DNA of 64,000 bases, taken from Pohlia nutans (lineage: Eukaryota > Streptophyta > Bryopsida > Bryales > Mniaceae). Numbering within the stretch: the first letter of the stretch is position 1; each line of letters starts with the position of its first letter. The position numbers and the translations under genes were made by a program. The notes beneath the pieces are model-generated. The model was not told where the DNA came from, ran no database searches, and saw nothing but the letters and a program-made list of their open reading frames with translations. Location: contig CM040085.1 of the NCBI GenBank assembly GCA_022496805.1, positions 10,445,811 through 10,509,810 of the forward strand, in the 5' to 3' direction. Below are positions 5,291-55,511 of this stretch, piece after piece.

Positions 5291-5325
5291 TTGAATGCGT
5301 GAAGTTTTAAGCACGTAAGTGAGCA

Positions 5326-22700: not shown

Positions 22701-24607
22701 TCGCGATCCCATGACCTGGGGCGATGATGCATTGGCCTTCAATCCAGACAGGTTCCTTGCCTCCGATTTGAGTGTGAATGGGACCAATTACCAGTATCTT
22801 CCCTTTGGAGCTGGAAGGAGGTCAGATGGATCATCAACCCTTTACTCATGCATAATTTTCTCTCCTTTTTGACTGAGGGTCATTGCGATTTCACTCTTTT
22901 TGGACTTTACAGGGGTCTGGGTTAGATTGAATTGAGTTTTGGTTGAGTGTTTTCAATGAAACTCAACCTAACCCCTTACGGACCAAGGATTCATGGTTTA
23001 AAATGACAAATTCAATTGATCATATTGTGAAAAATACAATTCAAATGAGACTAAATTTTATATTATTAGAATCAGTGAAGAACAATGCATATGTTCATCA
23101 AAAACAAATAAATTCGAACAAAAGAAGGTTCACATAGATTCAACTCAAAATTGCTAAAAAAAAAACATGAGGCTCAATTTGGACTTCTTGGTCTTTTAGG
23201 GGTTAATCAAGGGCCACATAAGGGGTTGAGTTGCATGGTGAGCAGAGGCATAGTCGAACGCAATAGTCCAAATTCTCAACCTAGGTAAGGGGGATGACAA
23301 TTAAAATTTTACTCTCAACTCACTATAGTTGACATGCCAATGACCACACAGTTCCAATGACTGCATAGTTTCAATCATAGTAGACATGCCAATGATTGCA
23401 CAGTTTCACCGCACAATTCCAATAAAAATGTAAAGTACCGCCCAATCACCGCATGTCGTGTGGTGAAGAACTCCAAGTAAATTTCCATTAAAAATCATAC
23501 CCAATGTGTTTGACGTGCAATAAAAGTTATTGTACAAAACATTTTTGAGTGTAATTTTTTCAAGGTGAATCCCAACTTGACATACCACAATCTTTCAAAA
23601 TTTGAGATGGTGTAAGTTTCTACATTGTTATGAGGAAGGATTTGAGTATTGCCTACGCGGTCATTGGCATGTCTAACTTACTAGAGCACCGCCCGCGTAA
23701 ACTGAAGAAACATTCCCAAAAAGACTCACAACTAGTCTTGTTCGTCATGTGTGGTTTTCTCATGAGTCTTTTCACTAGTCTACTCATGACAATTGAAATT
23801 ACTCTTTGTGCGGCTGTTGGTTGAAACTATTTTCAACCCAAAAGCACTTCAAACTTTCAACCCAATCCCTTGTGCGCCTCTTTCAATAATTCACATGAAA
23901 ATGAAACCAACAACTTAATTGTTTTCCGCATAATTTGAGAAAATTATCGTTTCCAAATAGGCCACACGAAACTGATGTTAAATTTATTTTTAGTTATTTC
24001 ACGTTTTGGAATGTCCAAAATTAAATTTCAACATTTGAATTGAGAAACAATTAAAATTGAAAATCAATCTATAGATTGTTGGACAGCCAAAGTTTTGTTG
24101 ACATTAGTAAAAGTTCAAATTTGAAACAATCATATCTCACTTGATAATGGCCATCTTTACACAATTTAAAGTGTGAGTTAAAACTTAATTGAAGATTTTT
24201 ATTTAAATTCATGTAGATTTCAGTTTAGTTCAAAAGCATCTGAAATCAATATCTTTGCAAAAACTTCCTCTATGACCCTCAGATGGTCCCCCTGGTTACT
24301 TGTAAGTTAAACATGAAGGGGGAAGGGATGCATGATCTTTGAAATTCCAATTTCTTGCTTCCCACACGACCTAATTTTGATCTGACTTTGTGGAGATCTT
24401 TGCATTCTGTGATGTAGGATTTGTCCTGGACGGGCAATGGCCATGAGAGTACTTTCTGTGACTCTCGCCTTTTTCGTTCATGCGTTTGATATGTCAGGCC
24501 TGCCAGGAGTTGAGCTCAATGCCAACGAAGAAGTAACTGGCCTCAACATTCGACCCGAAACTCCATTGCTTCTTCAAATGAGTTTGCGCCCTGCAGCCTC
24601 TACATGA
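16783..24607 (+). CDS. Cytochrome P450 (A-type, CYP71-clan-like), four exons
   Basis: Exons 16783-17730, 20818-20988, 22564-22820 and 24418-24607, about 521 aa, the normal size for a plant microsomal P450. Phases 0, 0 and 2 are consistent. An N-terminal hydrophobic anchor (about residues 18-35) and a basic stretch precede the hinge PPGP (45-48), which indicates ER anchoring. The I-helix AGTDT is at 321-325, the K-helix ExxR at 378-381 (E-V-L-R), and FNPDRF follows. The haem loop FGAGRRICPG is split by intron 3, with the ligand Cys near 461. ATG 16783 is preferred; no other ATG precedes it in frame. Compared with the first P450, a 4-bp deletion in the last exon shifts the frame and ends the protein about 13 residues early. 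Intron 1 (3.1 kb) and intron 3 (1.6 kb) are full of MITEs. Substrate unknown. Confidence 0.92.
17799..18161. mobile_element. Tourist-like MITE in P450 intron 1, TAA duplication
   Basis: Terminal repeats GGGCCGCTTCACACTATGG and its reverse complement, with TAA at 17796-17798 and 18162-18164. The GGGCC terminus and the TAA target are typical of PIF/Harbinger. The interior repeats the words GGCCTCTCGACC and GTGTGAAG. Confidence 0.8.
18162..19437. other. P450 intron 1, AT-rich middle part
   Basis: Intronic. A possible inverted pair AGTTCTTTAGACCACC (18253) and GGTGGTCTAAAGAACT (18696) suggests another MITE of about 460 bp. Open frames here are not conserved. Confidence 0.5.
19438..20527. mobile_element. 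1.09-kb TIR element in P450 intron 1, 9-bp direct repeats
   Basis: ATTCAGACA flanks both sides (19429-19437 and 20528-20536), a 9-bp duplication as made by Mutator-like elements. Inverted ends contain ACTCTAAATC followed by a C run and GGACGTTAA. The first few terminal bases do not match each other. Internally non-coding. It also contains TTAA next to GGGG near its right end, so a TTAA element nested inside is possible. Confidence 0.55.
21916..22267. mobile_element. Tourist-like MITE in P450 intron 2
   Basis: Terminal repeats GGGATGGTTCACACTATG and ATAGTGTGAACCAACCC in inverse. The flanks fit TNA (TCA at the left, TTA at the right). Related to 17799-18161 by the TTCACACTAT core. A truncated right end recurs at about 5730. 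Confidence 0.6.
22272..22492. mobile_element. TTAA-flanked MITE, 221 bp (class A)
   Basis: CCCATGAAGGACCAAG at the left and CTTTTAAGGG at the right, TTAA at 22268-22271 and 22493-22496. Contains the class A interior (GATTTTAAAATAAAGAATTC, AACATGAGGCCCA). Confidence 0.75.
22972..23202. mobile_element. TTAA-flanked MITE, 231 bp (class A), in P450 intron 3
   Basis: CCCCTTACGGACCAAGG to GGTCTTTTAGGGG, flanked by CTAA (22968-22971) and TTAA (23203-23206). The third P450 has the empty site with one TTAA at 42781-42784, in matching context (CTCAAC before, TCAAGGGCCAC after). Confidence 0.85.
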
Positions 24608-24720
24608 CCCCAAAAACTCCTACATCAAATGGACATGCGTGATGATGAGCGACCCAGAGTTGGGCGTGTATCTAACAAAGATAACTAAAAATAAACGAAT
24701 CTTGATTTGGAGCTACAGTA

Positions 24721-25014
24721 CACCGTTAGGGGAAATGTGGGGTCCCCAAAGGGCCCTCTAAGGCAGCCCGGGTTAGGTGAACAAGCTGCCCAAACACCCC
24801 TCCGTTTGTAAAACCATTGGTGAAGGTCGCTGCCCACTGACAGTGTCGGAAGCCGCAGTGCTGGCAGCGTCGATTGGCTCGACCCACGGAACTGCAGTGC
24901 TGGCAGCGTCGTGGCACCATTGGTGCCAACGTCAAAAACGTGCGGGCATACCTCAATTTTTTTTGCACGTGCCAACACCAAGGGCCTTTTGGAGACCCCA
25001 CCTTTCTCCTAATG
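24721..25014. mobile_element. GC-rich MITE 3' of the second P450
   Basis: Inverted ends with TTAGGGGAAATGTGGGGTCC at the left; the right-end reverse complement reads TTAGGAGAAAGGTGGGGTCT. Possible TA flanks. The interior has a partly repeated GCAGTGCTGGCAGCGTCG block (24859 and 24893). Absent from copy 1 of the segmental duplication. It lies within a slightly larger copy-specific segment (about 24650-25085). Confidence 0.65.
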
Positions 25015-25241
25015 TATAAAACACTGTTTAGGGTGTGTTCATTTCATGCAAAAGATGCCATACATGTCCACCACTAGGGTAAACATGTTGTCTTCATGTC
25101 CATGGCAAACAACCTCCAATGGACACTTTATCACAATGGTCTTTGAGCCATTGTTATGATTATATCATGTTTAGCACTTATTGCACAAGTTGAAAAAACA
25201 CTCACTTGCATAAAGATAAGATTGCTCCAGTATTCTGTTAA

Positions 25242-25815
25242 CCCTTAAACGTCCAACTGTCCAGAAAGTGGATGATGTACAAAATCAAACTTAGTTTTCT
25301 CATCTGTTATTGACTTTTTGTACTGTGGGTTCTTTTACTATATATTTTATGGGAAGTACGCTTCATGCATGTGTGATCTGATTAAAAAGGGGATGATTTT
25401 GTGAAATTTTTATGCCTCGTTTCATGTTGTAGTGATTCACCTAAAATTTCGAAGATTTCGGTGTAAAAGTGCTCTTTAAAAAGTCAACTCATAAAATTAA
25501 GCAAAGTTTCCCAAAAATCTCCAAAATCACTACACTTAGAGTATTACATTTCAACCCATCACAACAAATTTTATGTACAAATTGTCAACATCTCATTCGT
25601 AATCAAATTACAAAAGACTTTTGAATTTTAAGTTTCAAATTTAATACAAAAACATTGGTGATGGCAATCGTAGATCTAACCGTATGGATAGAATCTAATA
25701 ATTTATAGTGTACAATTTTTATTCAAACATCAAGTTCAAAATATCCCTTTGGATTGCATTTTATGATCCATCTTTGCAAAACTGCCGAATTTGGAGAGGG
25801 GTGAGGACGTCTGGG
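25242..25815. mobile_element. TTAA-flanked MITE, 574 bp (class B)
   Basis: TTAA at 25238-25241 and 25816-25819. Same position in the duplication as 1099-1680. Confidence 0.8.
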
Positions 25816-26269
25816 TTAATAGTCTGCCAAATGCAAACCGGAAATTCTTTCTTCCCCGGGACATTGGAATACCAGAATTGCACAAGTTCCAATTCAAGAA
25901 GGGAAAACAATGCTTCAAACATGCATCAGGAATTTCGGACCCCACTGATTCTGCACTGATTCAGTGCGATTTCCGATATTTCAAGGGTTCGTACGATTTT
26001 CGCACTGATTCCGCATCGTTGCGTCATTCATCGCAACTACACTGATATGACACGATGTTCGTACAAGCGGATATAGTACTGATTCGACACGATTGATACA
26101 TCCATTGAAAACGTATGAATTCAGCACTCTTTACAGTCGTCAAATGTCGTGTTTTAATCGTCTTTAAAACTACATTGATTCAGTGCGTTTTTCGTGCGAC
26201 ATCATCTTTTCTATATCTAGATTTTCTTTTCTTTTTATATCTAAATTTGATCAAAATAGTATTATTAAA

Positions 26270-26460
26270 AAATAAAAAATAAAATAAAATAAAAAATAAA
26301 ATAAATACTTTCCTCGCTACCCACTTCAACTACACGAAAATTGCCCGCACATGCGATGGGGCCCACCATAGCTTCCCAAGCTCTATCGCCACCGGTGGGA
26401 TTTGAACTCTCAACCTCCCGGTTGCTACTCAAGTTCCTAACCACCAAACCACTTCAAACT
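26270..26460 (-). mobile_element. tRNA-derived SINE
   Basis: On the minus strand it begins near GTGGTTTGGTGGTTAGGAAC (A-box-like). About 35 bases later comes a B box (GAGAGTTCAAATCCCACC), then a tRNA-unrelated part, then an A/T-rich tail of repeated TTTTA units (26270-26310). The order and spacing are those of RNA polymerase III promoter-bearing plant SINEs such as the Au family. It lies inside the 25924-27681 element. Confidence 0.75.
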
Positions 26461-26509
26461 CTTCATGCATAGAATAGAACTCCATTGGTAATTATCAAAC
26501 TTTTATTTT

Positions 26510-27040
26510 CAGCGGACTTTGAATGTTTTTAACTATGTGAAAAAAACTTTTTTTCCAAATTTTTCTTTTGCACTAGATTATGTAGGACGTTTTCTATATC
26601 TAGGATTTTTTTCATAATTTTTTGAATTTTTTAAATTTTTGCCAAAATCGTGACGGCAGAACAGGCTGTGAGCTGTTTATTATTTTTCAGCGGACTTTGA
26701 ATGTTTTTAACTATGTGAAAAAAACTTTTTTTCCAAATTTTTTTTTGCACTAGATTATGCAGGATTTTTTCTATATCTAGGATTTTTTTCATAATTTTTT
26801 AAATTTTTTAATTTTTTGCCAAAATCGTGATGGCAGATCAGGGATTCAGGGCTGTGAGCTGTTTTTTTTTTTTCAGCGGACTTTGAATGTTTTTAACTAT
26901 GTGAAAAAAACTTTTTTTCCAAAGTTTTTTTTGCACTAGATTATGCAGGACGTTTTCTATATCTAGGATTTTTTTCATAATATTTTGAATTTATTTATTT
27001 TTTGCCAAAATCGTGGTGGTTGTGAGCTATTTTTTTTTGC
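26510..27040. repeat. Three tandem copies of a 178-186-bp block
   Basis: Blocks start CAGCGGACTTTGAATGTTTT at 26510, 26688 and 26874 and end near GTGAGCT. AT-rich with long T runs. Located in the middle of the 1.76-kb TIR element. Confidence 0.85.
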
Positions 27041-27685
27041 TCCTATGATGAAAAGTACAATGATAACCAATAATACCAAATTTGAATTTTAAAAATATAA
27101 AATGTTATTTCTTTGAAATTTTAATGTGTATTGCTTCTAAACTCTATAAATGTAGATCTAAAAATGTTTTGGGAAATTAAACCGGAAGTATAATTTAAAG
27201 AAGATTCTTAGAATATTCCAAAATATTCCAAAATATTCCAAAATAATATAAAATATTTTGAAAGATTCCAAAAGATTCCAAAAGATTCCAAAAAATATAT
27301 TAAAATATTGTACACGGATGTCGTACGAAAATAATTTGCATTATAATAGATACTGAAATCGCACGAATATAATAAATGGCATTAATATGATACGTATACG
27401 ATACTCAATTCGCATTAACTAAAACCGCACGTTATCCGTGTCTTATCAGCCAAGTGATGTAAATACACGATTAACGCACGGATTCCGTCAAGCACGACTT
27501 TCGTGCGGAAACAATACTTTTTTGATAATCATTGAAAAGACACTGCATCGACACTCTAGTAATGCATGTCACTTCCGTACCGTGACGACACTTCTAAATG
27601 CACGTATGACGTGCGGAATCAGTGTTTAACGATAAACGCACTGAATCAGTGCAGAATCAGTGGGGTCGGAAATTCCTGATGTGTA

Positions 27686-28690
27686 CAAGTAAACTATTAG
27701 ACGAGGTCAAAGAAGGTAGAGGGTGTTAAATTGATCAAATTGCCCTCTCAATAGTGTTGAAGAATTTACTATGAATTTGATAACCTCGAGAGTTGGGAGG
27801 CTAGAGAAGGTGGTCACTCCTTCATGTCACACCTTTGGTAATCATGTGCACATGAGTGCATTTCAATAAAACATTAGTTTTAAATTTATTTTTAAAATGT
27901 ATAGCATTGGCACAATGAAAGAATGAACTATGAGTACATATCAGCTATATACCAACCATGCAATCTAATTTTAGTTTGTCAAAACTAATCTCAAAACTTC
28001 CATTTCAATAACAGTTTAACCAATTTCTATTCAAACTTTGATTGTAAAAATGGTCCATGCTTAATTCTAAATTTTAAAATTCATTAAAACCTTCATTTGA
28101 AAAATGTTATTTGAAAGAACAACCAAAAATATAAAAATTAAATAAATTTAAAAAATGGACCAAAAATTATTCAATAATTAAGCTTAAATATTTTTATTAT
28201 TTTTAAGTCCAATTTTTTTGAGGATGTTGATTTACATGTTTGAATATATGAAAAAAATTCTTTATATTCAAAAATTAAAATATAAATTAAAATAGACACT
28301 TCTAGTGCACCGTGACTAATCAAGTTGGGTGACATTGCGTTTGATTTGTGGCGGTGCAGTCACCCTAAAGTTGGATTTAGGTTGGATAAGGTTGGATTTA
28401 GATTTGAAAAATGTCAATTTTTCCAATTTAAGGGTGGGCATTAAGCACAACTCAATTTTTTTATTAAAAAATACAATTCACTATCTAAAACGACTTTCAC
28501 AAAAACCATACATTATAAACTCCTCAACTAATTCTTTGAGGTTTTCTTTTCTTTTCCATCAATTTTTATATCCAATGGTCATTAATACGGTCAAAATAAG
28601 GCCTTCCTATTTTAAGTGGTGTCAAAATGGTGCTTTTATTAAATGAAGGCATTATGGAGTACATACATGGGCAATTTTAGATGAACAACT
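27686..28690. other. AT-rich spacer in duplication copy 2, no gene seen
   Basis: Matches 1797-3089 with gaps. A segment of about 240 bp at 28047-28285 is extra here. No coding sequence recognised. Confidence 0.55.
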
Positions 28691-31600
28691 AGTGTGGCCT
28701 GCCGTTAGTCAAGATGTTCTCCGTGTTTCACATGTTTCCATGCTCCCCATGTTCCCATGTGTTCATTGTGCTTCCGTATGTTCCTCGTGTTCCTCGTGCT
28801 TTTCTTTTTGCTTTTGTTTTTTAGAATAATTTATCCATAATTTAATTCAATCTATCGTGACAAAATTAAATTAAAAATCCATAACTTCCATACCGTCGGT
28901 CCAAAAGCCACAAAACCACTTTGTTGCACCCCTACTCACCAAGGGCTTTCCCACGATGCCAAGAATGACAATGAAAACTCCCATATTCCATGTTTCATAA
29001 TTCAATTCAATTTATGTTGACAAAAATCATTCAAAAATCTATAATTCTCACACCGTACGTTCCGATGCAACGAAATCACTTTGGTATATCTTTCTTGTGA
29101 TTGTATGTATACTAAAAAATTCAAAAATAATATACAATAGTGTTTGGACCAAAATGTAATACATTGCGTCTAGTGACGTTGCATAATAGGTACGTTAATA
29201 CCTTAAGTGATACGTTTCATCAATTGAAGAATAGTAATGGCAATATTTTTTGTCAATTCCTATTACATAAAGGTATCGTATCCAAAAAGATTCCAAAAAA
29301 ATTCAATGATCAAGGTGGATATTAGAGGTTTACGGCAGCAATTCTTTTTCCTTTACAATAATGGCCCTAATAATTCCTACAAAAAAATTCTTGTGAGCTT
29401 AGTTCTTTAACCCCTAAACGTCAGAGCGGCCAGAAAGTGGACGACTAACAAATTCAAACCCTTCTCACGTTCTTATCAATGCTTGGATGAAAGTCATCTA
29501 ATTTGTTGGAGATTCTTCACCAAGTTGTTGTCCTATCTAACGGTTGGATTTAGTCATACTTGATTACATATTTTTCTAAAATTACAAATGTAGAAGTATG
29601 TCAAGTTGTTGACCAAGCCAAATTTGCATTGACTGTAGTTCAAAAGTGGCCTTGCAAAATTGTGGTCATAGATTTAAGAAACACAAAAATTTCAAAGAAT
29701 CACCATGTTTAAGAGTATCTCATTTCAAATTCATTCCAACAAATTTTACTCAAAAAAAATTAAAATTTTGTTTGTAATCGTATTTAGAAGGAATTTTTAA
29801 TTTTAACTTTCAAATTTTATAGTTAAATATTGGTGATAGTATTAGTGAATCGAACTGTACGGATGGAATCTAAATTCAAAATCTAGAACTTTCATTTGTA
29901 TATCAATTCCAAAATATTCTTCTAAATAGTAGTTTATGATGATTTTTCTCAAATCGTCAATTCTAGGGACATCCTGGTACGTTTAGGGGTTAATAAAAAC
30001 GGAGCATGTGGTGTAGTTGAAATATGCATTCAACGTGGTTTGCAAGCGGATAGAAAGGCATCAGCAAGAATATTAAAAAATAATATAAGATATGCTAAAA
30101 ATATTCTAAAAGATTCTATTTTCTATTTTAAATTTTTTTGGTATTTTCCTTATTTATAATATTATATCTTTAATCAACTACTTTACACTATTAGAAACAT
30201 TTTTTGCTCACGGCCTAAACACCCATAGTGCAAAAACACCCCCGTGCATTCTCTATGTTCCTCGTGCTTTGGCTTTCTTACTTTTAGAATAATTTATCTG
30301 TAATTTTATTCAATCTATGGTGACAAATTTGGACATTAAAAATCTATAATTTTCACACTGTAGGTCCAAAAAGCTACGAATTAACTTTGGTGCACCTTTA
30401 GTCATTGAGAGCTCTTTGGCCATGCCAAGAATGACATTATTTTTTTTCCAAATCCCAAATTCCATTTTGCATAATTCAATTCAATTTATAGTGGCAAAAT
30501 TCAATTAATAATCCATAACTTTCACATCGTAGGTCCAAACACAAAACAAATTTCGTGCACCCCTCCTCATTGAGAGCTTCCAGCGGTACCAAAAACGCGG
30601 CCGACAAGTGCACGGTCAAAGAGATGTCAACGTAACAAACAAAATAAACAAACCTCCTTTAATGTATACTAATGTGGCCTTGTGCCATTGGCCCAGATGT
30701 TCTGTTCCACTTGTCCTTTGTGTTCCTTGTGTTCGACATGTCCTCCATGTTCCCCTTGTACTTGTGCGTTCCCCGTGTTTGCCTCGTTCCTTGTGTTCCC
30801 CGTGCTTTTGTTTTATTTTTTTTAGAATAATTTATCTATAACTTAATTCAATTTATAGTGACAAAATTCAATTGAAAATCCATAACTTTCACACCGTATG
30901 TTCAAAAACTACGAAACAACTTTAGTGCATCCCTCTTCGTTGAGAGCTTTCCAATAGCACCAATAATGACATCAAAAACTCCCATATTCCATTTTTCATA
31001 ATTTAGTTTAATTTATGGTGATTTTTTATATTAAAATCCAAAACTCTTATATCGTAGATCCAAATACGACAAAACAAACTTTGTGCACCCCTCAATCATG
31101 TTTGAGAGCTTTCCAACATTACCAAGAACACGGCGAACGAGTGCCCAGTTCGAAAGATCTCAACGTAACAAAACAAAACACACAACCTTTCTTGATGTAT
31201 AAACTAGTGTAGCCTTGTGCTGTTGGCCTAGATGTTTGTCGTATCCCTTGTCTTCCTCATATTCCCTATGTCCCATGTGTTCCCGATATTCCATGTACGT
31301 TTCCGTGTTCCCCGTGGTTTTGTATTTTTTTATAGAATAATTCATTCATAATTTAATTCAATTTATGGTGACAAAAATTGATTAAAATTTCATAACTTCC
31401 ACATCGTAGGTTCAAAAGCTACAAAACAACTTTGGTGCAGCCCTACTTGTTGAGAGCTTGACAACGATGCTAAGAATGACATCAAAAACCCTCATATTTC
31501 ATTTTCCATAATTTAATTCAATTTAGAGTGACAAAATTCGATTTAAAATCCATAACTTTCACACGATATGTCTGATTGCAACAAAAAAAAACTCCATGCA

Positions 31601-31770
31601 CCCCTCCTCGTCGAGAGCTTTTTGATGATACCAAGAAAAAGAATGGTGGGCACATGGTTGAGGAGATCTCAATGTAACAAAACAAACAAATAAACAACGT
31701 GTCGTAATGTATAGATACTAGGGCCATGGTGTGCATCCAACCACATCTATTCACAAAAGTGAAGTTTTGA
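28690..31770. repeat. Degenerate higher-order tandem repeat array, copy 2
   Basis: Same paired repeats of about 160 bp as at 3090-5290, seen near 28829, 28997, 30297, 30474, 30834, 30997, 31346 and 31510, with the GTGGCCTTGTGCC block at 30672 and a variant at 31210. A class C MITE (29411-29989) has inserted into it. Confidence 0.7.
29411..29989. mobile_element. TTAA-flanked MITE, 579 bp (class C), with empty site in copy 1
   Basis: CCCCTAAACGTCAG to GTACGTTTAGGGG, TTAA at 29407-29410 and 29990-29993. Copy 1 of the duplication has no insert at 3425-3445 (GCTTAGTTTGCTAATAAAA), so this insertion followed the duplication. Confidence 0.85.
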
Positions 31771-31849
31771 GTGCGTGAGGTTTTGAGCATGTAAAGTTTT
31801 GAGCACATAAATGAGCATGTAAAGTTTTAAGCACATAAATGAGCACGCA

Positions 31850-32130
31850 GTGAAAGATCAACTCAAGTCTCTTTTAAGAATTTTCTTGGTGAAAGATCAT
31901 TCAATAAGAGTCTCATTCAAGAGTTTTTTTTTGGTGAAAGATCAATTCTAGTCTCTTTCTAAGAGTTTTCTAGTGAAAGATCAACTCCGGTCTTTTTCTA
32001 AGAGTTTTCTAGTGAAAGATCACCTCTAGTCTCTTTCTAATAGTTTTATAGTGAAAGATCAACTCCAATCTCATTCAAGAGTTTTCATGGTGAAAGATCA
32101 AATCCAGTTTAGGTCAAGAGTTTTGTTGGT
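31850..32130. repeat. Minisatellite, about 40-bp unit, about 7 copies
   Basis: Same unit as 5326-5535 (GTGAAAGATCAACTC through AAGAGTTTT). Units start near 31850, 31890, 31936, 31975, 32013, 32052 and 32091. Confidence 0.75.
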
Positions 32131-33356
32131 TCCAAATCCCAGTACGCAATACAATTTTGGATAATCCTTCAAATAATCTTTAGACCTTCATACACCCTCT
32201 TGCAAATTGTCATGGCAAATGGTAGTACAAAATTAATAATATAGTTCATTTTGCAAGCTTTCTCTTGTAATTAAATCATTGAATATAAACAATTTAGTTA
32301 TCTGACCCAAATTATATGTTTATTTTAAAATATTTTAAAAATACCTCAAAAATTTAAATTTTATTTTGAAGTGATGCTCCTTAATTCAAAGTTGGTTTAT
32401 TCTTTGACAAATATAGAGTTCATTTGTCAATTATATATTTCATCTTGATACAACAAATGGATAAGTTAAAAAAATGAGACAAAATACAAAATAAGACAAT
32501 TAAAACAATGAAAAATGAAAAAACTATTATTTTCTTTCAAATTAAAAAATTGGACTTGACAAATGAACTTTTCAAAAATGAGAATTCAAAGTATATTAAA
32601 AAAAATACCATAAGTACCAAAGCTAATAGTGTAAATCCTACTTCAATCCTGATACAATACAAGACCTTTGTGTCGCTAAGAATAATAAATGAAATTTTTG
32701 AATACTAAAATTTTGAGAAATTAGATATTCACAACATTTTCTTGTTAAGTGCATCTTTAATAGAAGTGGTATTTTGATATAAAGCTTTTTGGACCAAATT
32801 TTAATAATAATAATAATAAATAAATAAAAACGAGTTAACTCCTAAATGTCCAACCATCCATTTTCAAAACGATGTACAGAATCAAACTTTGTTTTCTCAT
32901 CCGTCATGCATTTTTTGCAAGGTGAATTTTTTACTATAGATTTTATGGGAAGTTAGCTTCATGCGTGTGTGATTGGATAAGAAAGGGGATGATTTGTGAT
33001 ATTCTTATGCCTCATTTCATATTGCAATGATTCACCAAAAAAACTTAAGATCTTAGTTCAAAAATGCTCTTGAAAAAATCAATTCATAGAATTAAGCAAC
33101 CAAAAATTGTCCAAAAATCCCTACATTTAGAGTATTACATTTCAACCGATCACAATAAATTTTATCAACGGATTGTCAATATCTGGTTCGTAATCAAATT
33201 ACAAAAGAATTTTTGAATTCTAAGTTTAAAAGATTTATACAAGAATATTGGTGATAGCAATTGTAGATCTAACTGTATGGATAGAATCTAAAATTCATAA
33301 TGTACAACTCTTATTCATACATCAAGTCCCGCAGCAAGTTCAGAATATTCCTCTTA

Positions 33357-34941
33357 CAGTGGCTAGCAGAAATAGTTGTACAAGCCATGCTGATTTACAA
33401 AATTAGCTACCAATTCTACAAAAACTATCATAATATTGCAAGGAAAAGACCATAAGAGCATATAATTTCAAAAAACATATAGCACAACCTTTAGACTTTA
33501 AAATATAAACAAAAAATATATATGCAACAAAGATGTAAGATTCTTTTTGCAAAAACTGATATCATTGTACATTAATTGTAGAAAACAAAATTCATAATGA
33601 CTACTACCGTATGTAACTACCTTTTGCTTCGTAAACATCACCAACTCTTTGAGGCATAGAACATATCAACTTCCTAACAGTCAACATCAACCTCAATACT
33701 ATACCAGATTTCTTGTATCTTCTCCTATAAATCACTTTTGCTAGTGGATTTCCTCTCAGACCTTTTCATACAACGATCTACTTCATTCGAGAGGTATTCT
33801 ATATGATTGAGGTTAGGCATTTGCAGTGGATGCCAAATAACTTGAATTTTTTGTGCTAGCAACTAATCTACAACGTAATGTGTAGTGTGCTCGGGGTCAT
33901 TGTCATGTTGGAAAATATCATTCTCTTCTAAATCTTGCATGTGTATAGTGTCTATAAGTTTTGTTTCCAAAATGTCTTCATACACATATCTATCTATCTT
34001 CCCTTCAATCAAATGAAGTTTGCCAACTCCTTCCCAGCTCATGCAATCCAAAACCATTATGCTTCTTCCCGCGTGTTTAACTGTACATTGCATATGTTGG
34101 TCTAAGAGACGTTCTCCACTCTTTCTTGAACAATTTTGCCGCCTATCTGAGCCAAAAAGGTTAAATTTTGATTCATCAGAAAAAATGACAAAACATCAAT
34201 CTACCCCAAGTTACGTGGCTGCACTTCTTCGCCCATTTAAAACGACGCGCTCAATGCTTCTTTGTCAAAAGTGGCTTTTTGGTCTTGACACATGCTTGCA
34301 GCCGTTGCATCTGAAGGCTCCTTCTAATAGTGTCATCACTCAATTGCATGCCTTCATATTGTAATCCTCTTCCTATTGCTGCAAATGTACTAGTACATCG
34401 ATCATTTAACCTCCTTACAATTTCACGGTTGCCACGTTCATCAAGAATTCGAGGTCTACCAGGTAAAGTTCTATCTCTTAAACACCCTCTCTCATGAAAT
34501 CTTTGCACTATGTCACTACAAGTGCTTCAGAGAATCCCAAAAATTGCTGAAATTTTGCCATATGAGTTGCCTCATTTATGCATCTCAAGAATTGCCCTTC
34601 GTTGATTTTCAAATCTCCTAGGAGCCATAGCAAATCACTTGTAACCTTTCCAAAACACAAAAAAGTGTAGGACAAGAAAGCCTCAAATCAACACTTGCAT
34701 TGAAAAGATTGTGGTGTGCACAACTTCTATGCATATTTAATTGTACACACCACTTCCAGATCTTTCAATCTGTAGGTCCTCCAAGTGGCTAATTTTGAGA
34801 ACATTTTCATTCATTGCATGCCTTGTGTTATTCTTTCTAAATTTGGTCGGAAAAATCATCTCACAACTACATTGTTCAATCACCGCCTCAGCCATTTTGA
34901 AATTCACTATGTCACTGTCCGAACGCTTCTGCTAACCACTG
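33357..34941 (-). mobile_element. Tc1/mariner transposon, 1585 bp
   Basis: Inverted ends CAGTGGCTAGCAGAA and TTCTGCTAACCACTG, with TA duplicated at 33355-33356 and 34942-34943. The undisturbed target (CTCTTAGTTGCATTTTAT) is visible in a sister MITE at 37018-37035. It encodes a decayed transposase on the minus strand. Confidence 0.9.
33740..34630 (-). pseudogene. Tc1-type transposase, decayed
   Basis: Minus strand. The N-terminal paired-like helix-turn-helix part includes GCLRDRTLPGRPRILDERG (34430-34490) and RRLNDRC. Next comes the first catalytic Asp in FSDESKFNLFG (about 34150-34190). After WEGVGKLHLIEGKIDRYVY comes the second Asp region FQHDNDPEHT (about 33880-33910). The third acidic site survives as NLNHIE near 33790. 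The reading frame is broken by at least one in-frame stop (after VVD, 33863) and by interruptions between 34094 and 34250, so the protein should not be functional. The full family length is about 340 aa. The DDE chemistry and TA target are those of Tc1. Confidence 0.85.
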
Positions 34942-35208
34942 TAGTTGCATTTTATATTGCATCTTTGGAATTCTCCAAATTTGAAGAGGGGTGTGGGCAG
35001 TTAGGGATTAATGTTATGATTTGAATACTAAGAGTTATCAATGTATGAAATTAAATCACATAAAAAATTTCCTATTCATTTTCAAATATATATTTTGTAG
35101 GAGGTATGCGACTAAAAAGAAAAACTAGGTTGTTAATAACTATGGTATGGAATTGAGAAATGTCAATCCCAACAACAAGAATGTTCTAGTATACAATATA
35201 TATGTTAA

Positions 35209-35697
35209 CCCCTAAACATCCTTACCCCTGTCCAAATTGGGTAGTTTTGCAAAGATGCATTATAAAATGCAACTAAGAGGGATGTTTTGAACTTGATGTG
35301 TTATAATGAAAGTTGTACATCATGAATTTTAGATTCTATATGTACAGTTAGAACTGCAATTGCTATCACCAATATTTTTCTATAAAATTTGAAATTTAAA
35401 ATTTAAAATTATTTTGTAATTTGATTACAAATAAGATATTGATAATCTGTGGATGAAAAGTTGAATTTTTCAAGAGCACTTTTATACTAAAATCTTCAAT
35501 TTTTTTTGGTGAAACACTACAACATGAAATGAGGCATAAAAGTTTCACAAATCATCCTTTTTCTAATCGAATCACATATGCATGAAGCTAACTTCCCATA
35601 AAAGATTTAGTGAAAAATTCACATTACGGAAAAGTGCATGATGGATGAAAAAACAAAATTTGCTTATGCAAAATGTACATGGTTGGGTAGTTAGGGA
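35209..35697. mobile_element. TTAA-flanked MITE, 489 bp (class B, reverse orientation)
   Basis: CCCCTAAACATCC at the left and TTAGGGA at the right, TTAA at 35205-35208 and 35698-35701. About 90 bp shorter than full class B. Confidence 0.75.
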
Positions 35698-35701
35698 TTA
35701 A

Positions 35702-36507
35702 CCCTAAACAACCATCCCCTTCTCAATGTAGCCAAACTTTGATCTATAGTTCAATTTCTTGTTTTGAATTTGAGACGAATATTTTTTAAATATTTTTCAT
35801 AGATGAACCTATATGTTTACTATACATCTTGAATTTTTCATAATTTTCTCTTGGAAATTGAATTTATTGTGATTTTCTTAAGTTTTATGTCTTCAAAAGA
35901 TCATATTAATTACATTAAGTATCCAAAATTTATGAATTTCTATCTTGGGTGTAAATCACAATTAGGATCACTTTGGTAATTTATAAAGTTTTCAATTTGA
36001 AAAATTTGATAGAAAAACTATGTTCAAGAACAAATTGGCTTTTGACCCATTAAATTAGTAATTGCTATAAAAGATTCAACAATTGAAATTTTGATGAATC
36101 GTAAAGTGAACTAGAAACTAGACTTGATTACCTTTACTTTGCTAGTTCAATTCGAATAAAAAAATAATTTCAAAGTGAAAACTAAGTTTGACCATAGAAA
36201 GGACACAATATGTTCTCTCTGTCTTTTAGTGGTTAAGTACTCCATTGATCCTAGTATACTACTTGACGCTTTTAAGTTGAATCAAAATTTTAGAGTTTAC
36301 AAGTATACACTTATGAAAAGTTTCTATATCCAATTTTCTCTATGTGCACACAATTTTGCACCAAGTTGATGTTCTCCATGACCTGAACGGGAAAAGGATA
36401 AAAGACTTTCACATGCTTGAATGTTGAATCATTCAATTTGCACTATGCTTGTAATGCACAAATTTCTTGGAACTGAAAAAAACGAGCTTAGGCTTTTCCA
36501 AATTCTC
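35702..36507. other. AT-rich spacer, nothing recognised
   Basis: No conserved reading frame, repeat or RNA gene seen. Confidence 0.5.
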
Positions 36508-36511
36508 TTAA

Positions 36512-37089
36512 CCCCTAACTGCCCAGGCGTCCATTTTTTGGACGATGTACAAATTTCATCCAATTTTTCTCATCTGTCATGCACTTATTGTAGTGTGGAT
36601 TTATTTGCTACAGATTTTATGGGAAGTTAGCTTCATGCATGTTTGATTTGATTAAAAAGGAGATGATTTTGAAATTTTTATGCTTCATTTCATGTTGTAG
36701 AGATTCACCAAAAATTTCTAGAATCTTAGTCCAAAAGTGCTCAAAAGTGCTCTTGAAAAAGTCAACTCATAGAATCAAGCAACTAAAAAATCTCCAAAAA
36801 TCCCTACAATGAGAGTATTACATTCTAACCCATCATAACAAATTTCATCTACAAATTGTCAATATCTTGTTTGTAATCAAATTACAAAATAATTTTGAAT
36901 TTTAAGTTTCAAAATTTATACAAAATATCGGTGATAGCAATCATAGACCTAACCGCATGGATAGAATCTAAAATTCATAATGTACAACTTTTATTCATAC
37001 ATCAAGTTCAAAATATCCCTCTTAGTTGCATTTTATAATGCATCTTTGTAAAAGTACCCAATTTGGAGAGGGCTTTGGGCATTTATGAG
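36512..37089. mobile_element. TTAA-flanked MITE, 578 bp (class B)
   Basis: TTAA at 36508-36511 and 37090-37093. It contains the uninterrupted site corresponding to the Tc1 insertion point in 32839-35007. Confidence 0.75.
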
Positions 37090-37093
37090 TTAA

Positions 37094-38896
37094 AATGCTC
37101 TATAAAATAGAATGTTTGTACATTTTAGTTAATTAAAAAATGCATATAATATTGAGGGCCAAAATCTGAATATGTTTCATTATTTTATCTTTATAGAAGG
37201 AGGTTTTGACCTTCAACATCTTGCACATTTTCCATCAAATGAAATATACAAACACTTTATCTTGTAGAGTACGTTAAAAGGATTTTATAGAATCTAGTTA
37301 ACCTTTTAACGCCTAAGTGCTTGGGTGATTGTATTTTGTCGCAAGAAATTTTCAGGGTTAAAAGTAATTGTCTAAATTTTTTTTTTGGATTTTGGATTTT
37401 GGATTTTAAAAAGGTTATCTATAAAAAAATCTTGTTTCAATTCATTGGATAATATAAACCTTGGAATAGTGTTTTGTGGAGGGAGTTGGCATGACATTGC
37501 GTTGATGTGGAGGTGGCTTGACGCGTACTGTGGGGTTGGGCGCAACTAACATCAGATGCATATGTTGCAGTTGACTTGATTGCCGATTCTAGAAGCCACG
37601 TGGCGGTCTCAAACCCCTGCCTGATACGCATGGGAGGACAATGAATAATGAAATGGCCTGATGGAATTTTTTGGCTCATATTCTTTTGGCCTGCTCCCCC
37701 TTATACTCCTATGTCCTTTGAAGGTTTAAAGGTTCTCATATGACTTTTGTAACAGAGCAAAAACTAGCAATTTGGAAAGAGGGGTGGGGGCAGAGTTTAG
37801 GGGGCCATTTATTATAGTTCAACAATCACTATATGGGAGAAGCTCTAAAGTAGGGGCCGCTACAAAATGGCCATGGCCCTCCAAATATAGAACGTCATTT
37901 TTTGTTTTTGTAGTTCATTGTATACTAAAAACAAGGAAGATTTTTATTCATTAGAGAAAATCTGAACCCTCTACAAGGCCCTTACCACTTGTTACCAGCA
38001 AAACTAAATATTGATTCTGGGGAGCATAGGCTTCTTGATAGACTTTGGAACTCAACTTGTGTGAATCTCGTGAAGGATGGTAGCAAATTACTTATAATTA
38101 AAGATATTCTATTCAATCAAATGTTCCTACAATCTGAAATTATAATGATTCTTTACATGACATGCACGTATTGTTTATTTTATTTAATTGCATAGTCAGA
38201 CAATCACAGGGAATGCCACACATGAATGTGCAATGAAATAAAACAAGCAACTACGTTACGAGGAGCTCTGACCGAAATTGAACAGGTGAAAAACGAGAAT
38301 GCATTTCAATGGAATCATGGACGGAATATATTTGCTACAGTGATATTTAGCCCAAAAATGAGGATCCTCGCAATGCCTCTTTCCTATGGTCAGAGCCAAT
38401 GAAGCTATCGTTTCCATTTGCGGATAGTCACATGGAGGGCCATGAGTGCCATGATTGTGCAAAGGTAGTGCCATACATGCTCGTAATAATAAATAGATTA
38501 CAACAACTAAAAAAGCAAGTACTCCTGTACATCGTCAGTCAATATGCTCCAAATATATATATTTTTCCTATACGGATAATACTAAAAGGGTTGTACTTCT
38601 CTCTAACAGAGCTCCAGGAGCTTGCCACCAATTCCAAGTACATCCAACTATGAATGGATGGTCCTTTAGAATGAGACTCTTTCATAAAAGAGAAAGCTTT
38701 TTCACCTGGGCAGAGAAAGGGAAAAAGCCATAAAGCACAAAAAAGCAAATACCGGTATGTGAGACCCCTCCTTTGGGAGCTTACTTGAGGGTTCAAACTT
38801 TCTCCAATGTGCGGTGACATGCAGCGCTTCTGCCCTTTACTTCTGCCCTTTACTTGAGGGTTCAAACTTTCTCTAATGTGGGGTGGGTGGAAGACA
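37094..38896. other. Spacer without a recognised gene
   Basis: Short open frames (for example minus strand 37437-37679) match nothing I recognise. Around 38780-38880 the phrase TTACTTGAGGGTTCAAACTTTCTC occurs twice as a short direct repeat. Confidence 0.45.
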
Positions 38897-39067
38897 CACT
38901 ACTAGCAAAGGCATCACTTTATCACTCAGAACAATGTCAGATTTCACTCTACACACTTGTCCTATGTGACAAATCGCACTCACCAAGTTTTGAGCGCCTG
39001 TGCAGTGAGTGTGAAGTGGCGTTTGACTCACCTACCGAGTGAAAAGCGACGCCTTCTCCTTGTAGTG
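38897..39067. mobile_element. CACTA-type MITE, 171 bp
   Basis: Begins CACTACTAGCAAAGGC and ends CTCCTTGTAGTG, with the 3-bp duplication ACA at 38894-38896 and 39068-39070. A sister copy is at 45396-45567. CACTA termini with a 3-bp duplication define the CACTA (En/Spm) superfamily. Confidence 0.85.
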
Positions 39068-39940
39068 ACAGTGCTTTTGCACGAGTGTGACTGGGGTGGC
39101 GCAGCCACTGTGGAAGAAGGCAGCAGCAGCAACCAGGACCTCCCGAGCCTTTGCCGGTACAGTGCCTGTTTCAGGTGGGGACAACCGTAGGAGATGCTCT
39201 CGGGACGAGTCAGCACTCAACAGATGGCCTTGGGGTCCCCGCCACTGAGAAATTCGAAACTGTCCCGACTCCCGGAGGACCCGTAATGGCGCGGCTCACC
39301 TCGCGTCATCATTGACAAGAGTTTGAACATCCCGTGCCCGCAACCCCGTCACTACGGTATATCATCTACTCCGCGGCATTGCCAGCTTCTCGTGAGTTGG
39401 CGGCGAGAGTGGACTCGCCGACTCCTGAAGGAATGTTCCCAAATTTTCATTTGATCTTGCGATATGCAGTTTTGTAACTCTTTATTAGGTTGAATAGACT
39501 AAAATATTAACATTTCTTTTAAGAGTAAAAGGAAACTGGCCTTTTTGGTCCGGCCCCTTCTTATAGAAGCGTATGTGACAATTGTCCGTCATACGGCTCT
39601 GCCTATCTAAAAAGTATCTTGTTAGCCGAAATAGTACTGGAACAGGTTGTAGGCGTAATTACGTTAAACTAAAATATATATATATTTTTTATGTCTTTAT
39701 GGCCGCTCACGCCCTTTTTTTTCCCTGTGAGAAACCTTTGGCCTCTAATCTAAGCTCAGATAGTGAAAAATGCAAAGAGAGAAGTTACAAGAAGATTTCG
39801 AGCTTAGATTGGGCGAAGAGAACTGGCAGCCCAAATAGTAGGATGCGGCTCTGAAAAGCGTTGGTACTCCGCATCTTCACGGAGAGTTCAATTTCACTGA
39901 GTCCATGTTGGAGACAGCAGGGCAGTCGTTACACCATTCG
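39068..39940. other. GC-rich then mixed spacer 5' of the third P450
   Basis: 39080-39430 is GC-rich (CCCGACTCCCGGAGGACCCG and similar) and could be a gene or element fragment, but no product is recognised. Confidence 0.35.
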
Positions 39941-39949
39941 TGCAGGTCG

Positions 39950-40480
39950 CTACTTATGGCTCCACGCGAAACTCCTGATGATTTCCCTGCCAGCCCATCT
40001 CTTTCCATTGCCTCGAGATTGCTTCCTCTGTTTTTTCCTTTGTGGTGTACGGGAGATTGGAGGTCCTGTATGCTGAAGATTGCAGGAGCCAGCAAGGAAT
40101 GTTTGACAAGATTTTGAACATTGTCGTCATCATTGACAAGATTTTGAACATTATGTCAATATATCTATGCTTCACTTGAAATTCTTGATAAACTCCCTGC
40201 CAACCCATCTCTTTCCATTGCTCTGTTATTTCCTGTTAAAGCTCTGGTGTACGGGAGATTGGAGGTCCTGTATGCTGAAGATTGCAGGAGCCAGCAAGGA
40301 ATGTTTGACAAGATTTTGAACATTCCGTCAGTATATCTGTGCTCCACTTGAAATTCTTGATGAACTCCCTGCCAACACATCTCTTTCCATTGCTCTGTTT
40401 TTTCCTCTGTTAAAGCTCCGGTGTACGGGAGATTGGAGGTCCAGACCGTCCTGTATGCTGAAGATTGCAGGAGCCAATAA
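39950..40480 (+). repeat. Three tandem repeats forming the leader of the third P450
   Basis: The phrase GTGTACGGGAGATTGGAGG followed by GCTGAAGATTGCAGGAGCC occurs at about 40046, 40249 and 40421, so units are about 204 and 173 bp. The last unit ends about 30 bp before the ATG at 40508. If transcription starts within or before these units, the promoter or 5' leader is present three times. Confidence 0.75.
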
Positions 40481-40507
40481 GAGAGGTTCAATCTCTTTGA
40501 GAACAGA

Positions 40508-43179
40508 ATGGTGGCCAAGGATGAGTTTCTGGCCTATGGAATTACTGTCTGCTTCGGAGTTCCCCTGCTAATCCTCCTGGTGTATCTTTCTTTTGGAAAG
40601 AAGCAGAAGAAGCTGCCGCCAGGTCCGTTTCCATGGCCGGTGATCGGAAACCTGTTTCTCGGCGGCCCGCATCCTCACCAAGCGTTCACGCAGCTTGCGC
40701 GCCGCTACGGCAACATCATGACTCTCTACTTCGGAAGCGTGCGAGTGCTCGTCGTGTCCGATGCCAGCATGAGCAAGGAGCTTTTCTCCGTCAGCGATGC
40801 GAATTTCGCATCTCGTCCCATTCACGACCTCATGTCCACGACCTCCAAGTACATGAACTACGGCGAAGAGAATGTGTCGATAATGAGTAGTTTGTACACT
40901 CCGAAAGTGCGTGAGATGCGTCAATTGATTATTAGCGAGCTATTCACGACGCAGAAACTGGAGATGAAGAAGAGTACACGAATAGAGGAGATTCGGCGGA
41001 TGGTGGCGGCTATGACCGAGGGAATTACTAATAGTCCTGTTGATGTAAGAGATACTGTTAGTGAGTTGAGCCTGCGGATCAACTGTCGGATGACGTTTAA
41101 TAAAGCGTTTCTGAATTCGGGGGGAGTTCCGGGGAGTTCGAGTGGGAGTGGATTAGATCCACAGGCGTACAGGAATTTGGAGGCGGAGAATATTAAGCTC
41201 TTGGCCACTCACAACAATCAAGACATGATTCCTTGCCTCAGGATCCTCTTCGGCCGCTTTGATGTCGATGGCATCCATGCAAAATGGAAGGATGTGACCG
41301 CGCGCAAAGTCAGTTGCGCGGAGAATGTTTTGGAGTGGTATCGGCAACGTGGAAGTGCTCCAGTTTCTGAGGAGTCGGAAATCGACTTCGTGGAGACTTT
41401 GCTGCGTCTTACCAATAGCGGCAAGTACACGGCGACCATCGCTAGATCAATGGTTTTGGTGAGCTTCTTAATTACAAGAGTTCTGGATGCGAAGTAAACT
41501 AGCTTGATCATTGATCTCTGAAGTTTTTGTTAGTAGTACTATGGAGTTCTTGGGAAATTTTGAAGTCCTCACGTTGTTGCTATTTATTATGTGGTGAAGG
41601 AACTGTTGACAGCGGGATCGGACACGATAGCTGCGACGTTGGAATGGGCGCTTCTGGAGCTTGTGCTTCACCCGCAGTGCATGGAAAGGTTACATGCGGA
41701 GATTGATGCAAAGTTTGGCATGCTTGGGCCAGTGGAAGAGGAGGAGGCAGCTCAATTACCGTACCTCCAGGTACTCAGGCACATGATGTCAAATGTATTT
41801 TGATGAATACCGCCCAGTGAATTTTTTTTCATTTTTTCAAGGGAGTTCCATTGGCGATTGAAAATTGAAACTTGAAAAATAGATAGCAGTTTTTGGCGAT
41901 TTACAATTTCTTTTACTACAGATACATAGCTTTCTATAGAATTGTTGGCTATATGTACCAATGATAAGGAAAGATTATGGCGATATACTCAATTTTTTAC
42001 CCAATTTTTTACCCAATTTTTCTTATAGCAACACAGCAAGACCACAGCAAGTTGGTGATATATAGCCACAAAAAAATTTGCTGACTTCATCCAGGAATTG
42101 GTACCTCTGAATCTGTGTTTCGGAGTTTCTCGTTGTCATCAGTGGCTGGATTTTGATGTTTCATTTGAATTCTCCCAGGCCGTTCTGAAGGAAGTTCTGC
42201 GTCTCCACGCTCCCACGGCCATGGGCATCCCTCACAGCAACGTGGAAGATGCCACCCTGGGAGGATACCACATTCCGGCGGGAACAACAGTGATGGCCAA
42301 CTTATGGGCCCTGCATCGCGATCCCATGACCTGGGGCGATGATGCACTGGCCTTCAATCCTGACAGGTTCCTTGCCTCCGATTTGAGTGTGAATGGGACC
42401 AATTACCAGTATCTTCCGTTTGGAGCTGGAAGGAGGTCAGATGAATCATCAACCCTTAACTCCTAAAATGACAAATTCAATTGATCATATTCTGAAAAAT
42501 ATTATTCAAATTTTATATCAACGGATCTCAATGAAGAATATTTCAAATGTTGACTAAGAAACAAATAAATTTGAATAAAGAAACTCCATATAAGACCTCC
42601 AAATTGTTAAAGAAGCCAGGAGACCCGATTTAAAGCTCTTGGTCCTTTAGGAGTTAACGTCATGCATTTTCTCTCAATTTTGAGAGGGTCATTTTGATTT
42701 CATTATTTTTGGACATTATAGGGTCACATAGGGGTTAGGTTGAGTTTAATTTAGGTTGAGTGTTTTCAACAAATCTCAACTTAATCAAGGGCCACTTAGG
42801 GGGTTGGGTTGGAATTGGGTTGGGTTCAAAATTTCTAATAAAAAAAGAAAAAGAAAAAGAGGTGAACGAAATGAAGTTTTACTGGGTGATGAAACCCTAA
42901 TTTCTTATGACTTCGCTGAAATTTTTGCATTCTGAGCTCGAGTGTGTGTGATGTAGGATTTGTCCTGGACGAGGTTTGGCTATGAGAGTACTGTCTGCAG
43001 CTCTGGGCTCTTTCGTTCATGCGTTTGATTGGTCAGCCCCGCCAGGAGTTGAGCTCTCCGCCAACGAAGGCACACATGGCCTCAACATTCGACCCGAAAA
43101 TCCATCGCTTCTTCAAGTGAGCTTGCGCCCTGCAGCCTCAGTTTACCTAACCCTGAGCACTTCTACATCCAATTCATGA
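40508..43179 (+). CDS. Cytochrome P450 (A-type, CYP71-clan-like), four exons
   Basis: Exons 40508-41458, 41600-41770, 42179-42435 and 42957-43179, about 533 aa. Exon lengths and phases mirror the second P450 (exons 2 and 3 are both 171 and 257 bp). An N-terminal hydrophobic anchor precedes a KKQKK basic stretch and the PPGP hinge. The I-helix AGSDT is at 322-326, ExxR at 379-382 (E-V-L-R), then FNPDRF. The haem loop FGAGRRICPG, with Cys near 462, is split by intron 3 after the AG of an Arg codon. It has the full C-terminal tail that the second P450 has lost. Introns are short (141, 408 and 521 bp) compared with its paralogue. Probably an ER monooxygenase; substrate unknown. This is the most intact gene of the cluster. 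Confidence 0.95.
42460..42653. mobile_element. TTAA-flanked MITE, 194 bp (class A), in P450 intron 3
   Basis: CTCCTAAAATG to CCTTTAGGAG, TTAA at 42456-42459 and 42654-42657. The second P450 has no insert at the equivalent point (CAACCCTTTACTCATGC at about 22835-22850). Confidence 0.85.
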
Positions 43180-55281: not shown

Positions 55282-55511
55282 CCTCTAAGCGTCTAAAACG
55301 TCCAATATGGCCATCTGCATCACACGGTGGCATTTTCTCATTTTACATCGGTTTTCTGATTGCAATACAAATCATTTTAAAGCTCTTGAATGTTCTATAA
55401 TACAAGATCAACAGTGTCGATCGTGTCAAACTGAAGTCATTTTCACACAAACAGATGCTTTCCAGCAGGGGGTTCAATTTTCCTACACTACGTAAAATAC
55501 ACAGTGGACGC
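55282..55511. mobile_element. TTAA-flanked MITE, 230 bp (class E)
   Basis: CCTCTAAGCGTCTAAAACG to GTGGACGC, TTAA at 55278-55281 and 55512-55515. Confidence 0.8.

What the first reader, a model, noticed from the sequence alone, without database searches (positions are those of the whole stretch)
22972..42653. Reciprocal empty sites show TTAA target duplication for class A MITEs, a piggyBac-like signature in a plant
In intron 3 of two P450 paralogues each gene has a class A MITE where the other has none. The 22972-23202 insert sits between CTAA and TTAA, and the other gene has a single TTAA at 42781. The 42460-42653 insert sits between TTAA copies, and the other gene has CCCTTTACTC. Ends are CYCCTWA...TTTAGGRG. 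A TTAA target with CCC-type ends is the known signature of piggyBac, whose presence in land plants is poorly documented. The link to piggyBac is inference because no transposase is in the window.
Basis: partly seen in the sequence, partly recalled or inferred. Interest (0 to 1): 0.8.

Follow-up and report, generated by a model that had tools for sequence, protein, structure and literature searches.

The report
piggyBac miniature transposons in a moss
Small mobile DNA elements in this moss window carry the target-site and end signature of piggyBac transposons, and the same moss genome encodes many piggyBac transposases, some inside elements with the same kind of ends, so a transposon group known mainly from animals is abundant in a land plant.

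Summary
Observation confirmed, inference supported. The window is from the moss Pohlia nutans. Both reciprocal empty sites exist, one a single TTAA, one TTTA. Class A is one of at least seven miniature families with TTAA|CCCYTWA-type ends; 20 such elements or fragments lie in the window. Of 93 ends found by profile, 89 were kept: T, T, A, A at 79, 80, 84 and 82 of 89, no preference one base further out. Duplications of 2 or 3 bp are rejected: genome counts give 1744 class A copies with TTAA..TTAA, 40 with one outer base changed, 31 with that change on both sides. The genome holds piggyBac transposases: 116 scored of 1305 candidates, best E 1.6e-81. Three traced transposase families sit in 5.5-9.1 kb elements with TTAA|CCC ends; one has three copies, 99.4-99.5% alike over the terminal 0.8-1.0 kb compared, and its ends match class b miniatures; another interrupts a class B copy at TTAA. 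Not found: the source element of class A. Activity was not tested.

The parts
22972..23202 (+). class A MITE in the third intron of P450 gene 1; flanks CTAA / TTAA
   Evidence: empty site TTAA at 42781 in gene 2
42460..42653 (+). class A MITE in the third intron of P450 gene 2; flanks TTAA / TTAA; 5' inverted repeat partly deleted
   Evidence: empty site TTTA at 22841 in gene 1
22841..22844 (+). empty site (TTTA) matching the 42460-42653 insertion
42781..42784 (+). empty site (TTAA) matching the 22972-23202 insertion
5755..5857 (+). class A, 5' half only, TTAA at the 5' side
22272..22492 (+). class A MITE, TTAA / TTAA
45120..45336 (-). class A MITE, TCAA / TTAA in element orientation
49163..49393 (+). 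class A MITE, TTAA / TTAA
52037..52247 (-). class A MITE, TTAA / TTAG in element orientation
62818..63397 (+). class B MITE, TTAA|CCCCTAAACGT..ACGTTTAGGGG|TTAA
29411..29989 (-). class B MITE, TTAA / TTAA; a related unoccupied stretch at 3279-3590 has a single CTAA
15384..15950 (+). class B MITE, TTAA / TTAA
1099..1680 (+). class b MITE, TTAA / TTAA; both ends match the 9.1-kb piggyBac element on C2
25242..25815 (+). class b MITE; same insertion as 1099-1680 by shared flanks (duplicated segment)
36512..37089 (+). class b MITE, TTAA / TTAA
35209..35697 (-). class b MITE with internal deletion (two profile matches), TTAA / TTAA
32839..33331 (+). class b MITE, one TTAA end recognised
14129..14575 (+). 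class b fragment without recognised ends
53255..53491 (+). class C MITE, TTAA|CCCCTAAGCGT..ACGCTTAGGGG|TTAA
52501..52726 (-). class C copy, partial
55283..55514 (-). class C copy
59428..59810 (+). class D MITE, TTAA|CCCTTAAACGTCA..TGACGTTTAAGGG|TTAA

Best explanation
Class A and the sister families are non-autonomous (MITE) members of the piggyBac superfamily. A piggyBac-type DDD transposase cuts at the CCC..GGG ends and inserts the element into TTAA, duplicating these four bases. The moss genome encodes many such transposases; three families that were traced lie in 5.5-9.1 kb elements with TTAA|CCC ends, and the class b miniatures share both ends of one of these. Shown: the 4-bp TTAA duplication, the CCC ends, transposase genes inside TTAA|CCC-bounded elements, three copies of one such element, and nesting of another in a MITE at TTAA. 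Inferred: that these or related transposases move class A, and that any of them is active today.
For: Empty sites for 6 of 31 insertions tested: c3 TTAA, c4 TTTA, B2 CTAA, D_L019 TTAA, E_L010 TAAA in 3 of 3 relatives, E_L015 TTAA in 10 of 12 class B/b relatives and TTGA in 2. End statistics. Mirrored-target test. TTAA-bounded inverted repeats start CYC in 31 of 49 pairs, against 4 of 121 for seven other AT-rich tetramers (some pairs join ends of different elements). Transposase. Elements with both ends: C2/C17 copies, C15, C17 nested in class B. Class A 5' ends in the genome within 2 mismatches: 9074, reversed control 0.
Against: No transposase-bearing element with class A ends (CCCCTAAAGGACCAAG) was found among the five transposase loci read. 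Both ends were found for three of the five; the C14 element lacks a recognised left end, the C18 element has none clear, and the C18 protein has Asn at the second catalytic Asp position. The C15 element's ends are CCCCTCA, not CCCYTWA. 21 of the 89 kept ends are not exactly TTAA. In 4 of the 6 empty sites some or all relatives differ from TTAA by one base. The count of TTAA..CTAA copies was not obtained (genome search did not complete), so the mirrored test uses a bound.
Confidence: 0.94

Rival explanations
1. PIF/Harbinger (Tourist-like) MITEs with a 3-bp TAA/TTA duplication and one extra terminal base.
For: TAA and TTA are contained in TTAA; Tourist MITEs are a known plant type with a 3-bp TAA/TTA duplication (PMC10004981 passage).
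Against: The outermost base is about as fixed as the others: T at -4 in 79 of 89 ends, base at -5 unbiased. 31 copies carry CTAA on both sides (read on either strand), against about 0.5 expected if the outer base were not duplicated and the uncounted class equalled the counted one, and under 5 if it were ten times larger.
Confidence: 0.02
2. Tc1/mariner elements with a TA duplication and A..T-ended inverted repeats, with a taste for TTAA.
For: The site can be parsed T-TA-A on both sides. A Tc1-like element with an open frame is in the genome sample (L012).
Against: Same mirrored-base test. That Tc1-like element has CAGT..ACTG ends and TA flanks, as published for moss Tc1-like elements (PMC4054914 passages).
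Confidence: 0.01
3. Kolobok (or Sola3) elements, other TTAA-duplicating superfamilies.
For: Kolobok duplicates TTAA (PMC9587614 passage); Sola3 too (recalled; the paper was not held).
Against: Kolobok termini are 5'-RR and YY-3'; here they are CCC..GGG. The transposases found inside TTAA|CCC elements are piggyBac. Kolobok and Sola transposases were not searched for in this genome.
Confidence: 0.02
4. Class A belongs to piggyBac but is moved by a different, unfound family, or moved only in the past; the transposases read here move other families.
For: Class A copies are about 70-81% alike in the window, against 99.4-99.5% for the 9.1-kb element's terminal stretches; class A ends differ from those of the three full elements read.
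Against: Class A shares TTAA|CCCYTWA with the other miniature families, and 116 transposase copies were scored of which only five were read. This rival changes the partner, not the superfamily.
Confidence: 0.4

Closest known systems
piggyBac (IFP2) of Trichoplusia ni and the piggyBac superfamily
   Same: TTAA 4-bp duplication (PMC8086355 passage), CC..GG ends (PMC10045372 passage), DDE_Tnp_1_7 transposase with the three Asp motifs and a Cys-rich tail
   Different: 24-28% protein identity over five comparisons; traced elements 5.5-9.1 kb, against 2472 bp for the original element (PMC10813416 passage); one carries arrays of a 40-bp repeat on both sides of the gene
piggyBat (Myotis), structure 9c0f
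   Same: phmmer E 1.7e-22 to the moss 565-aa protein
   Different: host; ends not compared
piggyBac-related MITEs of animals (e.g. the coral MITEs of PMC2872659; search listing only)
   Same: short non-coding elements; the paper's full text holds the terms piggyBac and TTAA
   Different: host; sequence relation not tested
Angiosperm MITEs classed as PiggyBac in surveys (PMC10004981, passage)
   Same: same superfamily label
   Different: the passage that I saw gives no transposase; here transposase and ends are linked in one genome

Membership tests
piggyBac superfamily | 4-bp TTAA target duplication | tested here: met
piggyBac superfamily | termini 5'-CC..GG-3' (PMC10045372 passage) | tested here: met
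piggyBac superfamily | DDE_Tnp_1_7 transposase encoded in an element with these ends and this duplication | tested here: met
   for 3 element families (C2/C17, C15, C17 nested); not for class A itself
piggyBac superfamily | three catalytic Asp residues | tested here: met
   4 of 5 proteins read; the fifth has Asn at the second
piggyBac superfamily | footprint-free excision restoring TTAA | not testable with these tools
   needs an excision assay
piggyBac superfamily | class A ends shared with an identified autonomous element | tested here: inconclusive
   five transposase loci read; none shows class A ends
PIF/Harbinger | 3-bp TAA/TTA duplication | tested here: not met
PIF/Harbinger | DDE_Tnp_4 transposase partner | not tested
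   unanswered
Kolobok | TTAA duplication | tested here: met
Kolobok | 5'-RR..YY-3' termini | tested here: not met
Tc1/mariner | TA duplication only | tested here: not met
   the Tc1-like element seen has other ends

The most novel reading that the evidence does not exclude
Mosses keep a diverse piggyBac lineage of their own, not recently acquired from insects, that is still moving and has filled roughly 7% or more of the Pohlia nutans genome with MITEs, including introns of P450 genes.
Probability: 0.45. Interest if true: 0.75.

Novelty: new member of a known kind. Interest (0 to 1): 0.66.

Why it matters
piggyBac is studied mainly in animals and used there as a genetic tool (general knowledge). 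A plant genome with many open-frame transposases, near-identical element copies and thousands of miniatures (9074 class A 5' ends alone) would give a native plant piggyBac to test, would fill in the host range of the group, and could explain part of the large DNA-transposon share of this moss genome (23.68%, PMC9247546, passages seen). The main text of that paper does not use the word piggyBac; its supplement was not seen.

Tried and rejected
Harbinger, Tc1/mariner and Kolobok readings (see rivals). Searching the window and the 220-kb genome sample for a transposase with T. ni piggyBac and with a profile of insect transposases: nothing significant. Class A in plasmids: none. A P450 relative in viral contigs: none. 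The 565-aa moss transposase in phages: none. Finding moss proteins with the insect query: 979 hits, the 120 listed were insect where a species was named. Literature searches with piggyBac and plant, land plants, fern, moss genome, moss, bryophyte, Physcomitrella/Selaginella, and DDE_Tnp_1_7 with plant: by title and start of abstract, and for some by passages, I saw no paper that describes piggyBac elements of a moss; only open-licence papers are held and most listed papers were not opened. The C. richardii genome paper has a table line of 1230 PiggyBac repeats (PMC6890710 passage). Cautions on my own counts: 4 of 93 ends were dropped for matching fewer than 5 of 7 positions of CCCYTWA, and two kept CTTA flanks look like one-base register slips; the seed copies of families A2, C, D, E and F were found by their TTAA flanks, so counts for A, B and b alone are also given. 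In one search one further row was an insertion's own flank and was not counted. In one search my join kept one base too many, which shows as a one-base gap against most relatives.

Full report
What the window is. The first exon of P450 gene 1 is nearly the same, by eye, as a Pohlia nutans flavonoid 3'-hydroxylase entry (P0003). The window is G000:C1:10445811-10509810 of a 697,796,988-bp assembly. So the organism is a moss.

The observation. Both reciprocal insertions are real and at the stated places. Joining the flanks of 22972-23202 gives a sequence that aligns through a single TTAA in gene 2; joining those of 42460-42653 aligns through a single TTTA in gene 1. Seven class A copies lie in the window, one a 5' half. 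Their flanks are TTAA with single changes (CTAA, TCAA, TTAG).

More families. Comparison of inverted repeats within the window brought out families B and b (about 580 bp), C (237 bp) and D (383 bp); a sample of 22 stretches of 10 kb, spaced along one scaffold (L001-L022, 217.5 kb without N), added A2 (573 bp), E (about 800 bp) and F (225 bp). Their consensus start is CCCYTWA. Of 49 inverted-repeat pairs bounded by TTAA in window plus sample, 31 start CYC; of 121 bounded by seven other AT-rich tetramers (AATT, TATA, ATAT, TAAT, ATTA, TTTA, TAAA), 4 do. Some pairs join ends of different elements, so 31 is not a count of elements. The families cover 7,341 of 64,000 bases of the window and 16,119 of 217,500 in the sample, 7.4%. 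The sample is one scaffold and the family list is incomplete, so this is a rough figure. In the window there are 21 profile matches, which make 20 elements or fragments.

Length of the duplication. Profiles of the elements, flanks not included, gave 93 ends, of which 89 matched at least 5 of 7 positions of CCCYTWA and were kept. Outside them the bases at -4 to -1 are T 79, T 80, A 84, A 82 of 89, and -5 is even (25 C, 23 G, 21 A, 20 T); 68 of 89 are exactly TTAA, the rest being TGAA, TCAA and TTAG (3 each), ATAA, CTAA and CTTA (2 each) and six single others. For A, B and b alone, whose seeds were not chosen by TTAA, 38 of 55 kept ends are TTAA, with T 48, T 48, A 53, A 50. Of 31 insertions tested, six have relatives without the insert that span the junction, each with one four-base site: TTAA, TTTA, CTAA, TTAA, TAAA (3 of 3 relatives), and, for a family E copy inside a class b-type copy, TTAA in 10 of 12 relatives and TTGA in 2.

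TTAA flanks alone cannot tell a 4-bp duplication from 3 or 2 bp with fixed end bases. Rare insertions at other targets can: a true 4-bp duplication of CTAA leaves CTAA on both sides. Whole-genome exact counts of class A-type copies (two 13-position ends, 180-210 bp apart) are: TTAA..TTAA 1744; CTAA..TTAA, both strands together, 40; CTAA..CTAA, both strands together, 31; the same patterns read backwards 0. If the outer base were not duplicated, mirrored copies would number about 0.5 if the uncounted TTAA..CTAA class were 40, or 4.6 if it were 400 (Poisson P for the latter about 5e-16). Some mirrored copies could be segmental duplicates of one insertion; the printed beginnings differ among most of them by eye. 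So the duplication is 4 bp, with CTAA/TTAG as a minor target, 31 against 1744.

The transposase. PF13843 (DDE_Tnp_1_7) has 1305 first-look candidates in the genome; 116 were scored, all over the family's cut-off and over nearly the whole profile, best E 1.6e-81. By my count of the table 78 of the 116 have no stop inside; open frames run from 435 to 1274 residues. The 14 control genomes give none. Five loci were read. All five proteins match PF13843 at E 1.1e-82 to 2e-81. Identity to T. ni piggyBac is 26.0% (C14), 27.2% (C2), 23.9% (C18), 26.7% (C17) and 28.0% (C15), E 4e-28 to 2e-41; the three Asp motifs are present in four of five, and C18 has Asn at the second. Five Cys and one His of the tail are invariant among the five. 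The 565-aa protein matches solved piggyBac (6x67, 9.4e-36) and piggyBat (9c0f, 1.7e-22).

Elements around the genes. (1) A 9.13-kb element at C2:32771505-32780638, TTAA|CCCCTAAACGTCCTCACCC..GGACGTTTAGGGG|TTAA, with the 565-aa frame. The same element stands at two places on C17 with different flanks and TTAA on both sides; the four terminal stretches compared (0.8-1.0 kb each) are 99.4-99.5% identical, and the search table gives all three a 565-residue frame without stops. Its left end equals the class b 3' end in 25 of the first 26 bases, and the b profile matches the terminal 103 bp of its right end (E 5e-7), in the matching orientation. So class b looks like an internally deleted relative. 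(2) A 5.5-kb element on C15, TTAA|CCCCTCAAGGCCC..|TTAA, inverted repeats 13 of 14, with a 579-aa frame; one copy read. (3) An 8.5-kb element on C17 with a 530-aa frame, CCCTTTAACATCCC..GCGTTAAAGGG, that splits a class B copy: the B profile matches 1-284 on the left and 279-580 on the right; of 8 relatives that span the place uninterrupted, 6 have TTAA, one TTAG, one TCAT. (4) C14, 1004-aa frame: a right end next to a class A copy, left end not recognised. (5) C18, 605-aa frame: ends not resolved, inside a pair of 1016-bp inverted repeats 99.9% alike.

Origin. A profile search with the five moss proteins returned 212 relatives, the best 120 listed; the two listed with a species name are animal (Leptopilina boulardi 34%, Patella vulgata 30%), the rest unnamed or 'hypothetical protein' from environmental or assembled sources. 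In a quick tree (FastTree, 93 sequences, root set on six insect proteins) the moss proteins fall in two places among the unnamed sequences, apart from those insect proteins. That argues against a recent gift from insects; it does not show vertical descent, and the hosts of the nearest sequences are unknown.

What is known. Passages say that piggyBac-like elements occur in plants (PMC8086355, PMC10813416) and list PiggyBac among angiosperm MITE types (PMC10004981); a fern genome table has a PiggyBac line (PMC6890710). I saw passages only. I saw no moss case in the search listings named in Tried and rejected. So this is a new member of a known superfamily, in a host group where I found it hardly described, and abundant there.

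What remains open. The source element of class A, present activity, and the meaning of the RG-rich upstream frames and of the 40-bp repeat arrays.

Noticed in passing
window 6217-7497 and 9960-11240: Inverted repeat of 1281 bp, 100% complementary, 2462 bp apart, with shorter inverted arms around it (5887-11604): a very young palindrome-like structure or an assembly effect.
   Followed up: no
window 5338-5543 and 31903-32139: Arrays of a 39-bp repeat, near larger repeated segments (3919-5634 and 28757-32230).
   Followed up: no
window 1099-1680 and 25242-25815: Two class b copies share flanks, so they look like one insertion duplicated with the P450 segment; class A copies at 5755 and 22272 also share about 25 bp of 5' flank.
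   Followed up: partly
L024 1010-1575 and 4264-5149: Arrays of a 40-bp unit in opposite orientation on both sides of the piggyBac gene in the 9.1-kb element.
   Followed up: partly
L023 474-3485, L036 2465-3439, L025 2-802, L035 8161-9360: Frames upstream of, or fused to, the piggyBac domain; the first three hold RG-rich stretches by eye. They may be 5' exons or a second protein; no Pfam match for the L036 and L035 frames.
   Followed up: partly
L012 8374-9987: Tc1-like element with CAGT..ACTG ends, TA flanks and an open 342-aa frame.
   Followed up: partly
L029/L025/L030, G000:C18:2301874-2311478: piggyBac gene inside a pair of 1016-bp inverted repeats 99.9% alike, with GTGCCAG ends rather than CCC.
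   Followed up: no
L015 1407-2208: Family E copy nested in a class b-type copy at TTAA: layering of these elements.
   Followed up: yes
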